Positions 20,726 to 34,082 of a stretch of DNA of 64,000 nt are shown here, piece after piece (position 1 is the stretch's first letter; every line of letters starts with the position of its first letter). Under the pieces are notes generated by a model that was given only the letters and a program-made list of their open reading frames with translations, ran no database searches and was not told where the DNA came from. Source of the DNA: Neobacillus cucumis (GTDB lineage: Bacteria > Bacillota > Bacilli > Bacillales_B > DSM-18226); the NCBI RefSeq assembly GCF_016107705.1, contig NZ_JAEHGC010000002.1:558001-622000 (forward strand), written 5' to 3'. The translations under genes were made by a program, and so were the position numbers.

Positions 20726-22210
20726 ATGTTAAATTACGTAATTCCTAGGTTATCCTCTGATCAAATGATTTCAATCATCAGAAATGGACTTAAAAAAACC
20801 AAAACACCCAAGAAGATCATTATTATTGGCGCAGGTATGGCAGGACTGGTCTCGTCCTCTTTGCTTAAGCAAGCTGGACACAATGTTACAATCCTTGAAG
20901 CTACTGATAGGGTGGGAGGGAGGGTCTATACGTTAAGAGGCGATTTAAGGGATGGACAATATCTTGAGGCTGGTGCAATGCGAATTCCTCATACTCATTT
21001 GTTGGTTTTGGAATATATAAAAAAATTCAAACTTCCGGTTAATAGGTTTTTCAATTCGACTCCTAATGACATTATCTATATTAAAGGATCCAAAACTCGA
21101 TTTAAGGCGTATGAACAGAACCCTGATATTTTGAGCTTTCCCGTGTCCCCGCAAGAAAAAGGTAAAACCGCTAAGGAGTTGCTTCAATTAGCAATAAAAC
21201 CGGTGACAGATTTTATTGAACAAAACCCAAAGAGAAATTGGCCTTGGGTCATAAAAGAATTGGATAAATACTCGATGGACACTTATTTGAGATATAACCC
21301 GTTTGGAGTCACATTATCTCCGGGTGCTATAGAAATGATTAAAGTAATTCTTACACTGGAAGGACTTATGGAGCTTTCTTTCTTGGAACTGTTACGTGAA
21401 CTGTTAATCCTATTTACCCCTGATATCACCTTTTATGAAATAACGGGCGGTAACGACCAACTTCCTAAAGCATTTACGACACAATTGAAAGATGATATTT
21501 TTTACGGACAAAAGGTGAGGAAAATTGTCCAGCATGACAACCAAGTAACCATTCATTCTGTCCATAAAATTTTAGAGCCATTTCAAATCACGGGTGATCT
21601 TGCGATTGTGACCATTCCTTTTTCGGTGTTACAATTTGTGGAAATTGAACCACGTAATTCATTTTCTGAAAACAAATGGAAGGCGATTCGTGAACTTAAT
21701 TATGCGGGCTCTACGAAGACTGGCATCCAGTTTAAAAACAGGTTCTGGGAAAGGGAAGGTTTGTATGGTGGGCAATCCGTTACGGATCTCCCTATTAAAT
21801 ATATTCAATACCCGAGTCATAACCTCGGTATACAGGGATCGGGTGTTATTTTGGGGAGTTATACATGGGAGGCTGATGCTGTACCTTGGGACAGTTTGGA
21901 AAATGATGATCGCTTGGAATATGTATTAAAAAACTTGGCTACCATTTTTGGTAAACAGGTGTTTAGTGAGTTTCAAGCAGGAGTGAGCCACAGTTGGGTT
22001 CGATATCCGTATTCTGCTGGGGCATTTACGATGTTTAAACCCGAACAGGTAAAAGAATTAACTCCTTATATATCCACTCCCGAGGGAAGAGTTCATTTTG
22101 CTGGAGAACATGCCTCTACTACCCACGCTTGGATCGAAGGTGCAATCGAGTCCGGAATACATGCTGCATATGAAGTCAATGACTTACCAATAACTTTCAC
22201 TCAGGTTTAA
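20726..22210 (+). CDS. Flavin monoamine oxidase family protein (copy 1)
   Basis: A 494-residue FAD enzyme of the amine oxidase/L-amino acid oxidase family. The dinucleotide motif GAGMAG lies at 35-40, with the ribose-binding Glu58 (TILEATDRVGGRV). The C-terminal FAD motif [28 protein letters not shown] matches L-amino acid oxidases and monoamine oxidases, which oxidise an amine to imine with release of hydrogen peroxide. The start is ATG behind AGAGGAG. A paralogue on the other strand at 24602-26074 shares layout and many motifs. No signal peptide is seen. The substrate is unknown. Confidence 0.9.
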   Translation: MLNYVIPRLSSDQMISIIRNGLKKTKTPKKIIIIGAGMAGLVSSSLLKQAGHNVTILEATDRVGGRVYTLRGDLRDGQYLEAGAMRIPHTHLLVLEYIKKFKLPVNRFFNSTPNDIIYIKGSKTRFKAYEQNPDILSFPVSPQEKGKTAKELLQLAIKPVTDFIEQNPKRNWPWVIKELDKYSMDTYLRYNPFGVTLSPGAIEMIKVILTLEGLMELSFLELLRELLILFTPDITFYEITGGNDQLPKAFTTQLKDDIFYGQKVRKIVQHDNQVTIHSVHKILEPFQITGDLAIVTIPFSVLQFVEIEPRNSFSENKWKAIRELNYAGSTKTGIQFKNRFWEREGLYGGQSVTDLPIKYIQYPSHNLGIQGSGVILGSYTWEADAVPWDSLENDDRLEYVLKNLATIFGKQVFSEFQAGVSHSWVRYPYSAGAFTMFKPEQVKELTPYISTPEGRVHFAGEHASTTHAWIEGAIESGIHAAYEVNDLPITFTQV

Positions 22211-24601: not shown

Positions 24602-26074
24602 TTATTTCGGTAGGTTATTCACTTCGTTGGCAACTCTTATTCCAGATTCAATCGCTCCTTGCATCCAACCGTGGGTAAGGGTTGTATGTTCACCTGCAAA
24701 ATGAACTCTCCCTTCGGGCAAAGTTATATAAGGAAACAATTCATTTTCCTGGCCCGGATCAAATGCCACAACTGCTCCTGTAGAATAGGGGTTATCGATC
24801 CAACTAAAAGAAGTTCCTCCTATAAATTCAGAATAGACTTGGTCACCGAAAATTTCGGCTAGGTTTTTTAAGGCATATTGAATGCGATCTTCATCTGATA
24901 AACCATTCCATGTTAAAGCTTCATCTGACCATGTATAACTTGCCAAAACAACAGCAGGTCCTTCTTTGCCAATCCCTTGGCTTGGGTAATAAGTGAACCG
25001 AATCGGCAAATCCGTTATAGATTTACCACCATATTGACCATGCCTTTCCCAAAATCTACTTTTAAATTCAATTCCAACTTTTGTTGCTGCCATATAGTTG
25101 ATTTCACGAATTGCTCTGCGTTTATAGTAAGTAAAAGAATGGTAGGGTTCAATCTTCACAAATCGTAACACGGAAAAGGGGATCGTTATGATGGCAAGAT
25201 CACTTGTAATAGAGGAATTTTCTAAGTTGATCTTATCGGTGGAATGGATGGTGACATGATTGTTATGTTGGATCATTTTTGTCATCCTTTGATTGAACCT
25301 GATATTCTCTTTTAATTGGGGCATAAATGCCTTTGGGAGCAGATCCATGCCACCAGTGATCTCATAATATCGATTGGTGCTGAAGGTCGATGCTTCACGT
25401 AAAACTTCAAGAAATGACATTCCCATATAGGCTTCATAGTCAAGGAGTACATCAATCATATCAATTGCGCCATCTGAAAAGGTAGTTCCGTATTGATAAT
25501 GGTACGAATTTAAAAAAGAGCCAAGTGAGGAATTTTTAAATTCTTTTGCTATTAAAGGCCAATTTCTCTTTGGATTTTTTTTAATAAAATTAACAATAGG
25601 CTGGAAAGCTAAATTAAACAGTTCTTCTGCGCTTTTACCCCTTTCATTGGGACGAACCGGAAAGTTTAGAATACTTGGGTTTTGTTCATACATATTGAGA
25701 CGTGTCCGTATTCCATTTATATAAAGAATATCTGTGGTTGTTCGGTTGATAAAAAGGTTTAAGGGTAAACTGAATTTTTTAATATATTCTAAAGTTAACA
25801 AATGAGTATCAGGAATTCGCATGGGACCCGCGTTTAAATAAAGTCCGTTGCTAAAAGGGTCACGGATGGTATAGATACGGCCTCCAACAAGGCTGTTTGC
25901 TTCCAGGATGGTGACGTGATGCCCAGCCTCCTTCAAAAGCGACGCGGCAACAAGTCCTGCAATCCCTGCACCGACAATAGTAATCCTCTTAGGGACTGTC
26001 GATTTTTTAAGACCATTCCGAATAAAGCTAATCATCTGTTGTATGGTTAAGAGCTCGTTTATGTTTTCAGGCAT
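24602..26074 (-). CDS. Flavin monoamine oxidase family protein (copy 2)
   Basis: A 490-residue paralogue of the gene at 20726-22210. Both open with a short hydrophilic extension ([13 protein letters not shown] here, QMISIIRNGLKKT there), then [35 protein letters not shown], and end [38 protein letters not shown]-binding motifs are intact, so it should be active. ATG 26074 follows GGGGAGATGAA. The two copies face each other across the broken gerA fragment and the BMP gene, suggesting an old local duplication. Confidence 0.9.
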
Positions 26075-29603: not shown

Positions 29604-29647
29604 TCAGTCCTCCACTGCCTAACGCAGCGGGGGACTGATTCTTTTTT
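29604..29647 (+). terminator. Terminator of the FAH gene
   Basis: TCAGTCC/GGACTGA outer stem with inner CTGC/GCAG, then TTCTTTTTT. It overlaps the last codons of the convergent orf1. Confidence 0.75.
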
Positions 29648-30197
29648 CACCAATGAAAAATGCTCTGCAAAAAAACGATAATAGGAAGAATAGCGAGAGA
29701 CCGATTAACGTAATTCCCAAGTTGACTTGTTGTCCCTTAAGATAATTGTTACAGAGACGAATGGGAGCGTTAGCGTAAAGCCAGCCCATGACAAAAAGCA
29801 TGGAAATTACATTTGCCCAAATGAACCCCTTCACTACAGGAGACAGCCGCCCCCAGCTAAAGGCTAGGGGCAGACCAATCATTAGAGGAGCAGTCAGATA
29901 CTTTGCTAATTCAAATGTAGTACTGTTAAGCGCGGCATCAAGGGATCTCGGCAGAAGCCAAAAGATGCTGGTAAATATAGCAATGAACAGACCAGGAATT
30001 CCATCTGGGTTGTATTGACCCCATTCCGGCTTCCAAACATGTTTCCTGAAGCTGGTTCCAAATAAATATCCAGTAAAAGCTAATAAAGGAATTTGAACAA
30101 CCATTTGGCCAACCATAGTACTTTCAAGACCCGTTCTTACTTGTGGGATACTTAGGGCGGCAATAAGCATAAAGCTAATGAATACAATAGGTTTCAT
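29619..30197 (-). CDS. sNOR-cluster membrane protein (orf1 position)
   Basis: A 192-residue membrane protein with about five helices (PIVFISFMLIAALSIP, VQIPLLAFTGYLFG, GLFIAIFTSIFWLLP, GFIWANVISMLFVMGWLY, LIGLSLFFLLSFF) and a cytosolic basic tail. The ATG directly follows the senC stop (TGA then ATG), so the genes are translationally coupled. Position after a CuA subunit, heme-copper subunit I and senC corresponds to orf1 of the norSY-senC-orf1 clusters known from ammonia-oxidising bacteria. The function of orf1 is not established; assembly or a quinone-linked role is speculation. Confidence 0.6.
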   Translation of the reverse strand: MKPIVFISFMLIAALSIPQVRTGLESTMVGQMVVQIPLLAFTGYLFGTSFRKHVWKPEWGQYNPDGIPGLFIAIFTSIFWLLPRSLDAALNSTTFELAKYLTAPLMIGLPLAFSWGRLSPVVKGFIWANVISMLFVMGWLYANAPIRLCNNYLKGQQVNLGITLIGLSLFFLLSFFCRAFFIGEKRISPPLR

Positions 30198-30806
30198 TCA
30201 TTTCACCCTTAAATTTAATTCCTCGACAACTTTGTCGGGAGAGTTATAATCATATATCTGGATTAACCTGCCTTTAGGATCAATTAAATAAAATGCTGCA
30301 TTATGTTCAAATCCATTTTCAATCGGGATGACAATGACCCCTGCCATTTTTAATAATAACTTCAGTTCCTTTTGGTCTGGAACCGTAGCTATTCTCCAAT
30401 TGACTCCGTCTGCTTCATACAATTCGCGATGGTGTTCAAGCATTTCAGGTGTATCCCGCTTAGGGTCAAAACTAATACTTATAAAATGTAATTTGTCACG
30501 CAGGATCCTTTTTGGAAGGCTCGAATAAATTTTATTAAAATTCATCTCCACTACGGGGCAAACATCTCCACAGGTAGCATAAAAGAACGTAGCCAAAACG
30601 TATTTCCCTTGATATTCAGAAAGGGTAAAGGATTCTCCCTTACTGTCCTCAAAAGTGACATTAGGAACGATGGGACTTTCCTGCAACACATTGATTTTCC
30701 TTGCCTGTTCGGCTGTAAAAGCCCGAAAATGATCGCTATAGAAAAACAAAATGGCTGTGCCTAAGATTGTGAGCCCTATTGTCATGAAGAAATATTTTTT
30801 ATCCAT
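30198..30806 (-). CDS. senC: Sco1/SenC family copper chaperone
   Basis: A 202-residue membrane-anchored thioredoxin-fold protein. One N-terminal helix (YFFMTIGLTILGTAILFF) anchors it outside the membrane. The copper site is complete: Cys79 and Cys83 in YATCGDVCPVV and His168 in GFEHNAAF; SFDPKRDTPEML is the usual third block. Sco proteins load or reduce the CuA centre, fitting the CuA subunit in this cluster. The ATG at 30806 overlaps the end of the subunit I gene by 8 bases; the longer frame up to 30851 runs inside that gene and is unlikely. Confidence 0.92.
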   Translation of the reverse strand: MDKKYFFMTIGLTILGTAILFFYSDHFRAFTAEQARKINVLQESPIVPNVTFEDSKGESFTLSEYQGKYVLATFFYATCGDVCPVVEMNFNKIYSSLPKRILRDKLHFISISFDPKRDTPEMLEHHRELYEADGVNWRIATVPDQKELKLLLKMAGVIVIPIENGFEHNAAFYLIDPKGRLIQIYDYNSPDKVVEELNLRVK

Positions 30807-32286
30807 GTGTCGAAGTTCCAATATCCTCAGTATTGGAAATATTTTTCCCAATCTTGCTGGAGTAGTTAATAAAACGGAAGAAAAATAACAAGAAAATGAC
30901 CATTGCGAAAAATCCGAAGAAAGCAGCTACAATATCTACAGGAGTCCATTCAGGAAGATGCTCAGCCCAGCGTCTTGGAGCACTTGTCTTTCCAGAGAAT
31001 AAGAATGAATAGGTTAATCCAAGGAACGCCAGGAAATACATCCAAAAGATGAATTGGTCAAACTTGCTATCCGTCCGTCCGCCTTCCACCCTTGTCAGGT
31101 AGTACATGAATCCAAGAATCATTGCACAAACTCCCATCCCCATATACATATGGAAATGCCCCGGTACCCATTTGGTGTTGTGCATCACTTCATTGATCAC
31201 GATGGTGGCATCAACAATTGCCGGAATCACCCCAATCACCCAGCCAAATATTGAAAGGTAGAGGAAGGTTGAAGCCACGTCCCACTTAATTCCAGAACGA
31301 TAGATAATCATCAAAGCCCCAAATGCAGTAACAACCAGCACTGGGATTCCATTGATATAGGAAAGAACCTGCCCCAAAATCAGGACCCACTTTGGCATAG
31401 CATAGTCCATCAAAAGATGATGAGGATAGGCAGAAAGCGTTAAAATGGTTGAAAGGTTCCACGCAATTAAAAAGATTTTATTGGATTTCCAAGCCCTGCC
31501 CGTATAGCGGGGGAGTAGCTCATAGACGGCAATAACCCCCATATAAATGGTGGAATTTGCAAGAACATGGCCAAAGGCAAAGGTTAAGTTTTTTGCAAGC
31601 AGTGGATCAATAGTAAAACTTGGTGTGTAAAGGTTAATGAGGCTCATTAAAAGGATGGAAGCACCTGCAATCAGTGCCGTGATGTCAACTATACATACCA
31701 TTGTAGCGGCTACAACTGTTGGAGGAGGACCAAATCCTTCTTTTTTTCCAAGAAGTTGCGGCCAGCCCAACGTTGTAGAGAAGCTTCCATATTTTTTGAT
31801 GATGGCACGTGCGGTTTCTAATAGAAAAATCAAAAACGAAGTTCCAATTACTAACATCCCGCCTAAATAAAGGGCAGCACCAGTTTTCCCCCACACTCCT
31901 CCAGAAATGGCAGGCAGAGGATAAAGGAAGGTCCAGCTACCGGCAAAATCATAGCCAAAGATTGCAATTAGAATCATGGTAACGCCAATAAGGAAAAGAA
32001 TAATATATAGGTGAAACACAGACCTTTTTAAAGGAACGTATTGACTTAAAAAATACCACATGATGGCAGATACGGCGAGTATGGAAGCGCCGATCATACC
32101 GGTTCCATGCAGGGTCATGACTTTATAGAACATGATGGTGTCCAACTTGATAAGGTTTCCTTGGGACAGGAGCATCAGAACACCAGCAATCATCATTAAC
32201 AGTAATACCGCACCACTAATGATAAGTGGAAACACAACACTTTTCTTTGTATTTGGGTTAATTGCAACCCGTAATGTGTTTGTCAT
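30799..32286 (-). CDS. norY: Heme-copper subunit I, nitric oxide reductase type (NorY of sNOR)
   Basis: A 495-residue, about twelve-helix heme-copper catalytic subunit. All six canonical metal-ligand histidines are present: His60 (low-spin heme), His240, His289-His290 (copper B), His377 (high-spin heme) and His379 (low-spin heme, GHFHMYMGMG). Oxygen reductases have Tyr four residues after the first copper B histidine, cross-linked to it; here the segment is FGH240VLAN244, so the residue is Asn. Loss of that Tyr is the hallmark of NO reductases. With norS, senC and orf1 the gene order equals norSY-senC-orf1 of the sNOR family. Annotation pipelines would probably call it cytochrome c oxidase or cbb3 subunit I. 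Confidence 0.8.
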   Translation of the reverse strand: MTNTLRVAINPNTKKSVVFPLIISGAVLLLMMIAGVLMLLSQGNLIKLDTIMFYKVMTLHGTGMIGASILAVSAIMWYFLSQYVPLKRSVFHLYIILFLIGVTMILIAIFGYDFAGSWTFLYPLPAISGGVWGKTGAALYLGGMLVIGTSFLIFLLETARAIIKKYGSFSTTLGWPQLLGKKEGFGPPPTVVAATMVCIVDITALIAGASILLMSLINLYTPSFTIDPLLAKNLTFAFGHVLANSTIYMGVIAVYELLPRYTGRAWKSNKIFLIAWNLSTILTLSAYPHHLLMDYAMPKWVLILGQVLSYINGIPVLVVTAFGALMIIYRSGIKWDVASTFLYLSIFGWVIGVIPAIVDATIVINEVMHNTKWVPGHFHMYMGMGVCAMILGFMYYLTRVEGGRTDSKFDQFIFWMYFLAFLGLTYSFLFSGKTSAPRRWAEHLPEWTPVDIVAAFFGFFAMVIFLLFFFRFINYSSKIGKNISNTEDIGTSTHG

Positions 32287-32302
32287 TTACTAACTCCCCC
32301 CA

Positions 32303-32821
32303 TTATTCATTAACGATAATCTCGCGTTTCATAATGTGGTGGGCTGCACCACAATACTCCAAGCACAATATAGAATAGGTTCCAGGTTTCGTAAATTGAT
32401 AATACACAGTGTTTGTATATTGAGGCATGGCCTGAGTTTGAGCAACAATATTCATTTTATCATCGTATAAACCAAAGCCATGATTGACATCCTTGCTAGT
32501 GACATGAAAGGCAATGTAGTCTCCAACTTTAAAAGTGTCCTTAGATATTTCGAACCCAAATTGCATAGCGGTAACATCGACGTCAACAGGAGTGCCTTTC
32601 GCTGCCGCCCGATGATAAGGCAGTTGTTTTAAGGTAAAAAGGCTTGTAGTCAGCAACGATAAACATACCAATATAAACCAAATATTGCGAATAAAGTATC
32701 CCTTTTTTTGAATCCCGGTATAATCAACTTTTTTATCAGACCGTGCAAAGACAAACAGGAAGACAAAAATGATAAAAAGGCTAAGAAGTAAGGTAATATC
32801 CCAGGCTGCTTGTTGATACAT
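32303..32821 (-). CDS. norS: CuA-containing subunit II (NorS of sNOR)
   Basis: A 172-residue subunit II with two N-terminal membrane helices (DITLLLSLFIIFVFLFVF; FILVCLSLLTTSLFTL) and an external cupredoxin domain. The dinuclear copper A site is complete: His114 (VNHGFGLYD), Cys153, Glu155, Cys157, His161 and Met164 in CLEYCGAAHHIM. It therefore takes electrons from a cytochrome c or equivalent and passes them to subunit I. ATG 32821 has the RBS AAAAAGGGGGA; the longer frame from TTG 32857 has none. The norY start follows 16 bases after its stop, with its own GGGGGGAG. Confidence 0.85.
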   Translation of the reverse strand: MYQQAAWDITLLLSLFIIFVFLFVFARSDKKVDYTGIQKKGYFIRNIWFILVCLSLLTTSLFTLKQLPYHRAAAKGTPVDVDVTAMQFGFEISKDTFKVGDYIAFHVTSKDVNHGFGLYDDKMNIVAQTQAMPQYTNTVYYQFTKPGTYSILCLEYCGAAHHIMKREIIVNE

Positions 32822-32853: not shown

Positions 32854-33030
32854 TCAAGGATGGCTAAGCTTGTGTGCAGCAATAAATTCCTGCCTAAAAG
32901 AATCATACAAAATAAACATAGGAATTACTGTTAGAAAAGTCACAATTATCAGAAAAATAAAGGGATGGATTTCCCTGTTAGTTAGTAGATGAGGGGGTGG
33001 AAGGTTCCACTGATTCTCTATAAGTCCTTT
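32854..33030 (-). other. Reading frame for a single-helix small subunit, no usable start
   Basis: Between the FNT pseudogene and norS an open frame reads GLIENQWNLPPPHLLTNREI, then the hydrophobic helix HPFIFLIIVTFLTVIPMFIL and YDSFRQEFIAAHKLSHP, ending TGA at 32854. Shape and place recall the one-helix small subunits of B-type oxidases. No ATG, GTG or TTG begins the frame; only a short internal ATG exists. Either an unusual start (ATA, CTT) is used behind AAAAGGA, or it is decayed like its neighbour. Confidence 0.35.
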
Positions 33031-33701
33031 TCCTTTATAGATGCCGGAGGGTTAAGGGGGATGTGTGCTGAAGTGATTTCTTTCTTGTTTACAAAATGAA
33101 GAGCTAAACCTGTAAAAACGAATCCACCAATAAAGTTTCCAATTGTGGAACTGGAGGTGAATGCCATAAATGCACCTAATGTCACCATCCAATTACATAA
33201 AATTGCTTTTGTTATAGCAATGCTGATTCCTTCCACACCTAGGCTTTTATACGCGAGAGTTTTTCCTTCCGCCACAGAAATGATTTTTTCAATCATCGGC
33301 CCTTCGGTAATATGTCCCAGTTTTGTTGCAGAGATATAAAATAATCCCCCATACAACAGGCTTCCTAAAAGATTTCCAATAAGAACCTAAAAGAAGTTAA
33401 TATAAACACTTTTACCGGATGTAAGCCCTCTCATTTTAGAGAGTGGCAGCATGGCAAAATTCCCGGTTACCAGCTCTAATCCTAATAATAAAATAAGGAC
33501 AAATCCAACAGGAAAGATAAAGGCACCAACAATCCCCAACCGGGTTTCGATTGAAGCGGTATAAGCGAGAGTCGTGGCGAATCCCAAAAAGGCACCTGAC
33601 AGAATTCCCTTGCTTAAAATGTCCTTCATAGCCAAATTGGATTTATAGGCTCCTGTAGTTGCAACATCCTCTATCAACTGAATCGGTTTAATATAATCCA
33701 A
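33018..33701 (-). pseudogene. Formate/nitrite transporter (FNT) gene with one in-frame TAG
   Basis: Both halves lie in one frame. The first (from TTG 33701 behind AAGGAGGG) reads DYIKPIQLIEDVATTGAYKS and LGLELVTGNFAMLPLSKMRG to YINFF; then TAG at 33387-33389; then VLIGNLLGSLLYGGLFYIS, ILCNWMVTLGAFMAF and STIGNFIGGFVFTGLALHF. FNT proteins usually carry NFFW or similar here, so a TGG to TAG change fits. Intact, it would be a pentameric formate or nitrite channel of about 227 residues. Placed directly upstream of the sNOR genes on the same strand, it suggests a nitrite/NO context. Confidence 0.85.
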
Positions 33702-34082
33702 TCTCCATCCCTCCTTTTTCGTTTGATTTTTATTGTAAAGAGGGTACTTTGTCAAATCAATATTATTTTACAAAAAATTACAATTTACTTATTAACATAG
33801 TATTTATGGTAGAAATTCTGGAGATGATTGCAAATTAAAATTACTGCCAATCCGCTTGAGGATAAAGTGCTATTAATCTATTTGTTTTTTAATAAGTATA
33901 TCGAAGATTTGAATTCTATCTTTATACAATTAGGAATGTGTCGAAAAAAATAGATAATGTATTTTTAAGAAAAAGAGAATTAAAGTGTAATTTTACACTT
34001 TCGGGAATATAATTACATTAAACAGAACGTTCCTTTTTTGACCTTTTGAATAAATAATTATTTGTAAATGGTGGTGATAAAA
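33702..34082. other. Divergent intergenic region, FNT-sNOR side and YfjL-like gene
   Basis: On the minus strand a TTGACA box 17 bases before TAAAAA lies upstream of the FNT start, with TTGTAAT/TTGTAAA direct repeats further up that resemble ResD-type sites. On the plus side a 20-base palindrome is listed separately. No further gene is seen. Confidence 0.35.
33982..34001. promoter_or_regulatory. 20-base palindrome AAAGTGTAA-TT-TTACACTTT
   Basis: Perfect 9-bp arms around two bases, 82 bases upstream of the YfjL-like start. Without a T-run and with such a short spacer it looks like an operator rather than a terminator. Owner unknown. Confidence 0.5.

What the first reader, a model, noticed from the sequence alone, without database searches (positions are those of the whole stretch)
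29619..32821. norSY-senC-orf1 type NO reductase cluster in a Bacillus-like genome
Seen: CuA subunit, heme-copper subunit I, Sco chaperone and a membrane protein in the order norS-norY-senC-orf1, tightly coupled. Subunit I keeps all six ligand histidines but has Asn244 four residues after copper-B His240, where oxygen reductases have the cross-linked Tyr. Known: loss of this Tyr marks NO reductases, and this gene order defines sNOR in ammonia oxidisers. Inference: the cluster encodes an electron-accepting, CuA-linked NO reductase for detoxification or denitrification, and would be mis-annotated as cytochrome oxidase.
Basis: partly seen in the sequence, partly recalled or inferred. Interest (0 to 1): 0.85.

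Follow-up and report, generated by a model that had tools for sequence, protein, structure and literature searches.

The report
Bacillus sNOR-type nitric oxide reductase cluster
A spore-forming Bacillus relative carries a four-gene cluster for a copper-containing membrane enzyme that looks like a cytochrome oxidase but most likely turns toxic nitric oxide into nitrous oxide; this enzyme family is already described in Bacillus relatives, so the find is correct but not new.

Summary
On the minus strand, norS (32303-32821, CuA subunit), norY (30799-32286), senC (30198-30806) and orf1 (29619-30197) lie head to tail. NorY has six ligand His and Asn244 where oxidases have the cross-linked Tyr; among 110 aligned proteins the column is N in 87 of 88 sNOR-like rows (one masked), N in 5 of 5 bNOR, Y in 17 of 17 others. 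The tree puts it in one sNOR clade (100/99) with an ammonia oxidiser's NorY of the same gene order, apart from bNOR and B-type O2 reductases. Databases call relatives 'cbb3-type cytochrome c oxidase'. It is not new: Heylen and Keltjens 2012 described this cluster in Bacillus azotoformans and Geobacillus ('qCuANOR type II'), and a 2024 survey screened Bacillota for sNOR. NO reductase activity remains inferred; an O2-oxidase role has been proposed for Nitrosomonas europaea. Additions here: an Fnr-like box upstream of norS, enriched in Gram-positive relatives though absent from four of the closest; and a neighbouring formate/nitrite channel gene, broken in this window, of a kind known beside sNOR in ammonia oxidisers.

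The parts
32303..32821 (-). norS: subunit II, two N-terminal hydrophobic segments and a CuA domain (H114, C153, E155, C157, H161, M164)
   Evidence: COX2 above cut-off; ba3 subunit II chains; motif, hydropathy
30799..32286 (-). norY: heme-copper subunit I, 495 aa, six ligand His, N244 in place of the cross-linked Tyr, 12 long helices in the model
30198..30806 (-). senC: SCO1/SenC-type copper chaperone (CGDVC at 79, H168), overlaps norY by 8 nt
29619..30197 (-). orf1: hydrophobic protein of unknown function, conserved as the last gene of the cluster
   Evidence: no Pfam; hydropathy; homologue after senC or norY in many loci
32929..32944 (-). Fnr-like box TGTGACTTTTCTAACA (1 mismatch to TGTGA-N6-TCACA), starting 123 nt before the norS ATG; candidate anaerobic control site
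   Evidence: not significant in the window alone, enriched across relatives
33018..33755 (-). formate/nitrite transporter (FNT) gene upstream of norS, broken: an in-frame TAG and about 53 residues missing inside, relative to the intact FNT of L003

Best explanation
The cluster encodes a sNOR: a membrane NO reductase of the heme-copper superfamily with a CuA electron-entry subunit. Shown here: the genes, the ligands, the Tyr-to-Asn exchange, clade membership and gene order. Inferred: electrons from a membrane-bound cytochrome c (or menaquinol) enter CuA in NorS, pass through the low-spin heme of NorY to the high-spin heme/CuB site, and reduce 2 NO to N2O; SenC loads CuA with copper; orf1 helps assembly or is a third subunit. 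The upstream Fnr-like box suggests that the operon is switched on at low oxygen, when denitrification makes NO, so the role is NO removal and respiration in a denitrifying or NO-exposed Bacillaceae.
For: N244 column: N in 87 of 88 sNOR-like rows (1 masked), Y in 12 of 12 B-type oxidases, 4 of 4 A-type and 1 unassigned. Tree: sNOR-like one clade 100/99, holding the window and the NorY of a genome with AmoA-type (379.8 bits) and HAO-type (521.6 bits) genes; bNOR a separate clade 100/100 beside the B-type oxidases. Same gene order in that ammonia oxidiser and in Ruegeria. nosZ over the cut-off in 7 of 12 relatives' genomes, including those of the five closest loci; NirK-like matches of 185 bits or more in 10 of 12, all below the model's cut-off of 296.3, one of them with a stop inside. 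Fnr-like box with at most 1 mismatch in 32 of 71 Gram-positive loci against 63 of 591 other upstream regions. An Rrf2-family regulator, closest to NsrR in Ruegeria (100.8 bits, cut-off 182), diverges from the cluster there and, by similarity, in L170. Published: the same cluster in B. azotoformans; first indirect evidence of NO reduction by sNOR in Nitrococcus mobilis, cited in PMC6967387.
Against: No activity was measured here, and none of the passages seen reports a purified sNOR. Transcript data in N. europaea were read as pointing to a high-affinity O2 oxidase (PMC6967387, passages). The window's own genome is not held, so its nirK, nosZ or other NORs could not be checked. No denitrification gene was recognised elsewhere in the window, where 19 ORFs, two of them FNT pieces, were searched in Pfam and the rest only seen as translations. 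The four Neobacillus-type loci L001-L004 have no Fnr-like box within 2 mismatches. An Fnr box would fit a low-oxygen oxidase as well.
Confidence: 0.8

Rival explanations
1. The enzyme is mainly a high-affinity O2 reductase (or works on both gases) that manages without a cross-linked Tyr, scavenging O2 while NO is present.
For: Proposed for N. europaea sNOR from its induction under O2 limitation (PMC6967387 passages). CuB-type His ligands are intact, and Tyr248, invariant in 88 of 88 sNOR-like rows and absent from the other 22, lies four residues beyond N244.
Against: The redox Tyr column is N in 87 of 88 rows, and bNOR, with a biochemically studied NO reductase among its members, has N as well. 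Relatives' genomes hold 6 to 12 COX1-family matches each and several denitrification genes.
Confidence: 0.15
2. It is a bNOR (CuANOR) like the purified B. azotoformans enzyme.
For: Same Asn and CuA subunit, with a senC and a membrane protein next to it.
Against: The tree separates it from 5 of 5 bNOR rows, with 100/100 for the bNOR clade. NorY is 495 aa against 560-584 aa for four of the five bNORs (the fifth is cut by its locus end), and NorS has two N-terminal hydrophobic segments, matching published type II, not type I.
Confidence: 0.02
3. The cluster is decaying and not used: the neighbouring FNT gene is broken.
For: FNT has an in-frame TAG and an internal deletion.
Against: All four cluster genes are open, and NorY, NorS and SenC keep their metal ligands. 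The closest tree row, L005, has an intact cluster with no FNT detected in its 21-kb locus.
Confidence: 0.05

Closest known systems
'qCuANOR type II' of Bacillus azotoformans LMG 9581 (BAZO_04710-04695) and Geobacillus thermodenitrificans, Heylen and Keltjens 2012, PMC3475470
   Same: Same gene order (cbaB2-cbaA2-senC2-cbaC2), Asn substitution, short subunit I with 12 TMHs, two TMHs in subunit II; NorY 61% identical to Schinkia azotoformans
   Different: Window NorY is in another branch of the Bacillota clade (closest tree row 77%, Bacillus sp. MM2020_4; unnamed proteins reach 82% and 99%); a broken FNT gene lies upstream
sNOR (norSY-senC-orf1) of ammonia oxidisers, e.g. N. europaea NE0683-86, Nitrosospira briensis F822_1803-1806
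   Same: Gene order; N. briensis also has a nitrite transporter gene beside the cluster; an unnamed ammonia oxidiser (amo and hao genes) falls in the same clade
bNOR (CuANOR) of Bacillus azotoformans
   Same: CuA subunit, Asn at the Tyr position, senC and a membrane protein nearby
   Different: Separate clade, longer subunit I, subunit II with one helix fewer plus a 46-aa peptide
ba3/bo3 B-type oxygen reductases
   Same: Fold and ligands; best sequence match among solved structures is Thermus ba3
   Different: Tyr at the position (12 of 12 rows), different clade

Membership tests
sNOR | Heme-copper subunit I with six ligand His | tested here: met
   H60, H240, H289, H290, H377, H379 in 88 of 88 rows
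sNOR | Asn in place of the cross-linked Tyr (Table A4 of PMC8756737) | tested here: met
   N244; N in 87 of 88 rows, 1 masked
sNOR | CuA subunit II | tested here: met
   C-x-E-x-C-x3-H-x2-M at 153-164 and H114
sNOR | Gene order norS-norY-senC-orf1 | tested here: met
   order named for ammonia oxidisers in PMC4940428 and PMC4964001
sNOR | Clade with sNOR of an ammonia oxidiser, apart from other families | tested here: met
   100/99 in a 55-row tree; the genome of L151 has AmoA-type 379.8 bits, HAO-type 521.6 bits. No named Nitrosomonas sequence could be fetched, and no eNOR, gNOR, nNOR, cNOR or qNOR rows were included
sNOR | Reduces NO to N2O | not testable with these tools
   needs enzyme assay
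bNOR (CuANOR) | Clade with B. azotoformans BAZO_06399 | tested here: not met
   L111 (contig 42, published coordinates) and 4 others form their own clade 100/100
B-type O2 reductase | Cross-linked Tyr four residues after the CuB His | tested here: not met
   Asn244
cbb3 oxidase | Cross-linked Tyr supplied by another helix | tested here: inconclusive
   No Tyr at the recalled place (residue 283: T 72, V 16); Tyr287 is not invariant (80 Y, 8 F); Tyr248 and Tyr255 are invariant but on the same helix as His240 in the model. Model coordinates were not measured

The most novel reading that the evidence does not exclude
sNOR may use its own invariant Tyr248 (helix VI, absent from the bNOR and oxidase rows sampled), with Glu256 and Asp359, as a different proton/electron route to the active site, giving an enzyme able to reduce both NO and O2, controlled by Fnr in many Bacilli and historically teamed with a nitrite channel.
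Probability: 0.12. Interest if true: 0.6.

Novelty: new member of a known kind. Interest (0 to 1): 0.3.

Why it matters
NO reductases hidden under the name cytochrome c oxidase hide N2O-producing potential in Bacilli. sNOR is among the NOR families that a 2024 paper lists as proposed, not characterised. Cultivable Gram-positive hosts with an intact cluster and an apparent Fnr box would be good subjects for the decisive NO-versus-O2 test.

Tried and rejected

Papers: PMC3475470 section 15 read whole and passages; PMC11388526, PMC8756737, PMC6967387, PMC12569097, PMC10472526, PMC4940428 and PMC4964001 passages only; other papers only as search listings. Murali et al. 2024 and Stein et al. 2007 were not seen, only cited in those papers or recalled. 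A search for Bacillus + Fnr + 'nitric oxide reductase' + sNOR found 0 papers in the held library.

Full report
Observation. The minus strand of the window carries norS (32303-32821), norY (30799-32286), senC (30198-30806) and orf1 (29619-30197), spaced by 16 nt, an 8-nt overlap and a stop codon directly abutting the next ATG. Pfam gives COX2, COX1, SCO1-SenC and nothing for orf1. Curated NCBIfam models match only far below their cut-offs: for NorY, CtaD_CoxA scores 51.8 bits against a cut-off of 670.75. NorS bears a full CuA motif and two hydrophobic N-terminal segments. NorY bears all six heme and copper histidines and Asn244.

Family. The homologue search returned 1515 proteins at E of 0.001 or better, of 7999 candidates scored, 120 listed; those of the 120 with an NCBI name are mostly called 'cbb3-type cytochrome c oxidase subunit I' or 'cytochrome c oxidase subunit 1'. 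A scan of genome contigs confirmed 494 relatives and kept the best 80. In an alignment of 110 proteins (88 sNOR-like, 5 bNOR, 12 B-type oxidases, 4 A-type, 1 unassigned) the column of Asn244 is N in 87 sNOR-like rows (one masked), N in 5 bNOR rows and Y in the other 17. The groups were named before the tree partly from this motif; the tree, built on whole sequences, recovers them. The bNOR row L111 is the B. azotoformans gene whose published contig coordinates match (contig 42), and two oxidase rows come from the same genome, where the 2012 paper describes two Tyr-bearing genuine oxidases.

Tree. With 55 rows the 34 sNOR-like proteins form one clade (100/99) holding the window; its sister is Bacillus sp. 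MM2020_4 (99/96, 77% identity), then Neobacillus drentensis and a relative (100/99). bNOR (5 rows) is a separate clade (100/100) beside the B-type oxidases. A first tree with 50 rows agreed. To tie the clade to ammonia oxidisers I searched 300 genomes drawn from the order of Noviherbaspirillum: 106 had some match, 7 a strong one (E of 1e-140 or better), one of these being the query's own genome. One of the other six carries an AmoA-type gene within an amo-like set (379.8 bits) and a hydroxylamine-oxidoreductase-type gene (521.6 bits), so it is an ammonia oxidiser; it has the order norS-norY-senC-orf1 and falls inside the clade. The other five have no AmoA match. No named Nitrosomonas sequence, and no eNOR, gNOR, nNOR, cNOR or qNOR, is in the tree. 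Where the sNOR clade joins the A- and B-type oxidases is not settled here: it hangs on a long branch (2.0) outside the B-type rows.

Substitute tyrosine. Tyr287 is F in 8 of 88 rows; residue 283 is T or V. Tyr248 (88 of 88; L, M or I in the other 22 rows) and Tyr255 (shared with bNOR and B-type oxidases) are on the same helix as His240. Relative to B-type oxidases, the position of V251 is Y in 12 of 12 oxidases but V in 5 of 5 bNOR and 87 of 88 sNOR-like rows; V316 is S in oxidases and bNOR, V, I, L or A in sNOR-like rows; T320 and Y255 are kept. That these positions line the K-type proton path of ba3 is recalled. The altered path fits the table that gives sNOR no predicted proton channel and CuANOR one.

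Gene neighbourhood. In 8 of 82 loci (L001-L004, L053, L076, Ruegeria L131, Thermomicrobium L132) a formate/nitrite channel (FNT) match adjoins the cluster, in L053 and L076 only a partial one; L019 has one about 7 kb away on the other strand; the other 73 show none. Of 7 further regions, 2 have one: the ammonia oxidiser's (convergent, just downstream) and that of L076 again. [quoted passage not shown] In the window the FNT gene is upstream and broken by an in-frame TAG and an internal loss of about 53 residues relative to L003. Many Neobacillus, Cytobacillus and Virgibacillus loci show norS-norY with no senC, or neither senC nor orf1, detected, and four strains hold two copies (L002/L051, L003/L025, L004/L063, L005/L029).

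Control. An Fnr-like box with at most one mismatch lies within 300 nt upstream of norS in 32 of 71 Gram-positive loci, in 31 of them starting 74 to 145 nt before the gene; in 0 of 8 proteobacterial loci; L079 was too short to test; the window has one at 123 nt. The rate is 2.2% in random 300-nt stretches and 63 of 591 upstream of other genes in the same loci (Fisher 1.6e-11). Against it: L001-L004, among the closest relatives, have none within 2 mismatches, though L005 does. The loci are related, so the p-value overstates the case; some control regions may share the norS intergenic region, which would work the other way. The consensus is recalled.

Metabolic setting. Of 12 relatives' genomes, 7 have NosZ over the cut-off, including the genomes of the five closest loci L001-L005. 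NirK-like matches of 185 bits or more are in 10 of 12, none over the curated cut-off of 296.3 and one (L033's genome) with a stop inside; N. drentensis (L001) has only a 20.7-bit match and L004's genome only a partial one of 70.7 bits. A GerA-type spore germination gene in the window marks the host as a spore-former.

Verdict. A sNOR in a Bacillaceae-type genome; correct, well supported, already described as a family and in these hosts. The chemistry (NO against O2) is the open question and needs the bench.

Noticed in passing
window 33018-33755 (-): FNT (formate/nitrite channel) gene broken by an in-frame TAG and an internal deletion of about 53 residues; FNT genes sit downstream of the cluster in four Neobacillus-type relatives (L001-L004), seen intact in L003.
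   Followed up: partly
L131, L132, L053, L076, L169: FNT matches next to sNOR also in Ruegeria, Thermomicrobium, two Burkholderiales (partial matches) and an unnamed ammonia oxidiser: a recurrent nitrite or formate channel neighbour across phyla.
   Followed up: partly
window 32929-32944; upstream of norS in 32 of 71 Gram-positive loci: Fnr-like box mostly 74-145 nt before norS; a TATGA-N6-TCACT variant recurs near -110 in the norS-norY-only Neobacillus loci.
   Followed up: partly
L002/L051, L003/L025, L004/L063, L005/L029: Four Bacillus/Neobacillus strains hold two sNOR copies, one with senC and orf1 and one with norS-norY only detected.
   Followed up: no
L132 (Thermomicrobium roseum plasmid): A deep sNOR-like branch with N at the Tyr position, followed by FNT and a gene annotated as cytochrome c oxidase assembly protein, with no senC or orf1 directly after norY.
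   Followed up: no
L019 (record titled Arthrobacter beigongshangensis): sNOR nested among Bacillota sequences; transfer or a mislabelled genome.
   Followed up: no
window 20726-22210 (+) and 24602-26074 (-): Two flavin amine oxidase genes of similar length and family in opposite orientation about 2.4 kb apart.
   Followed up: no
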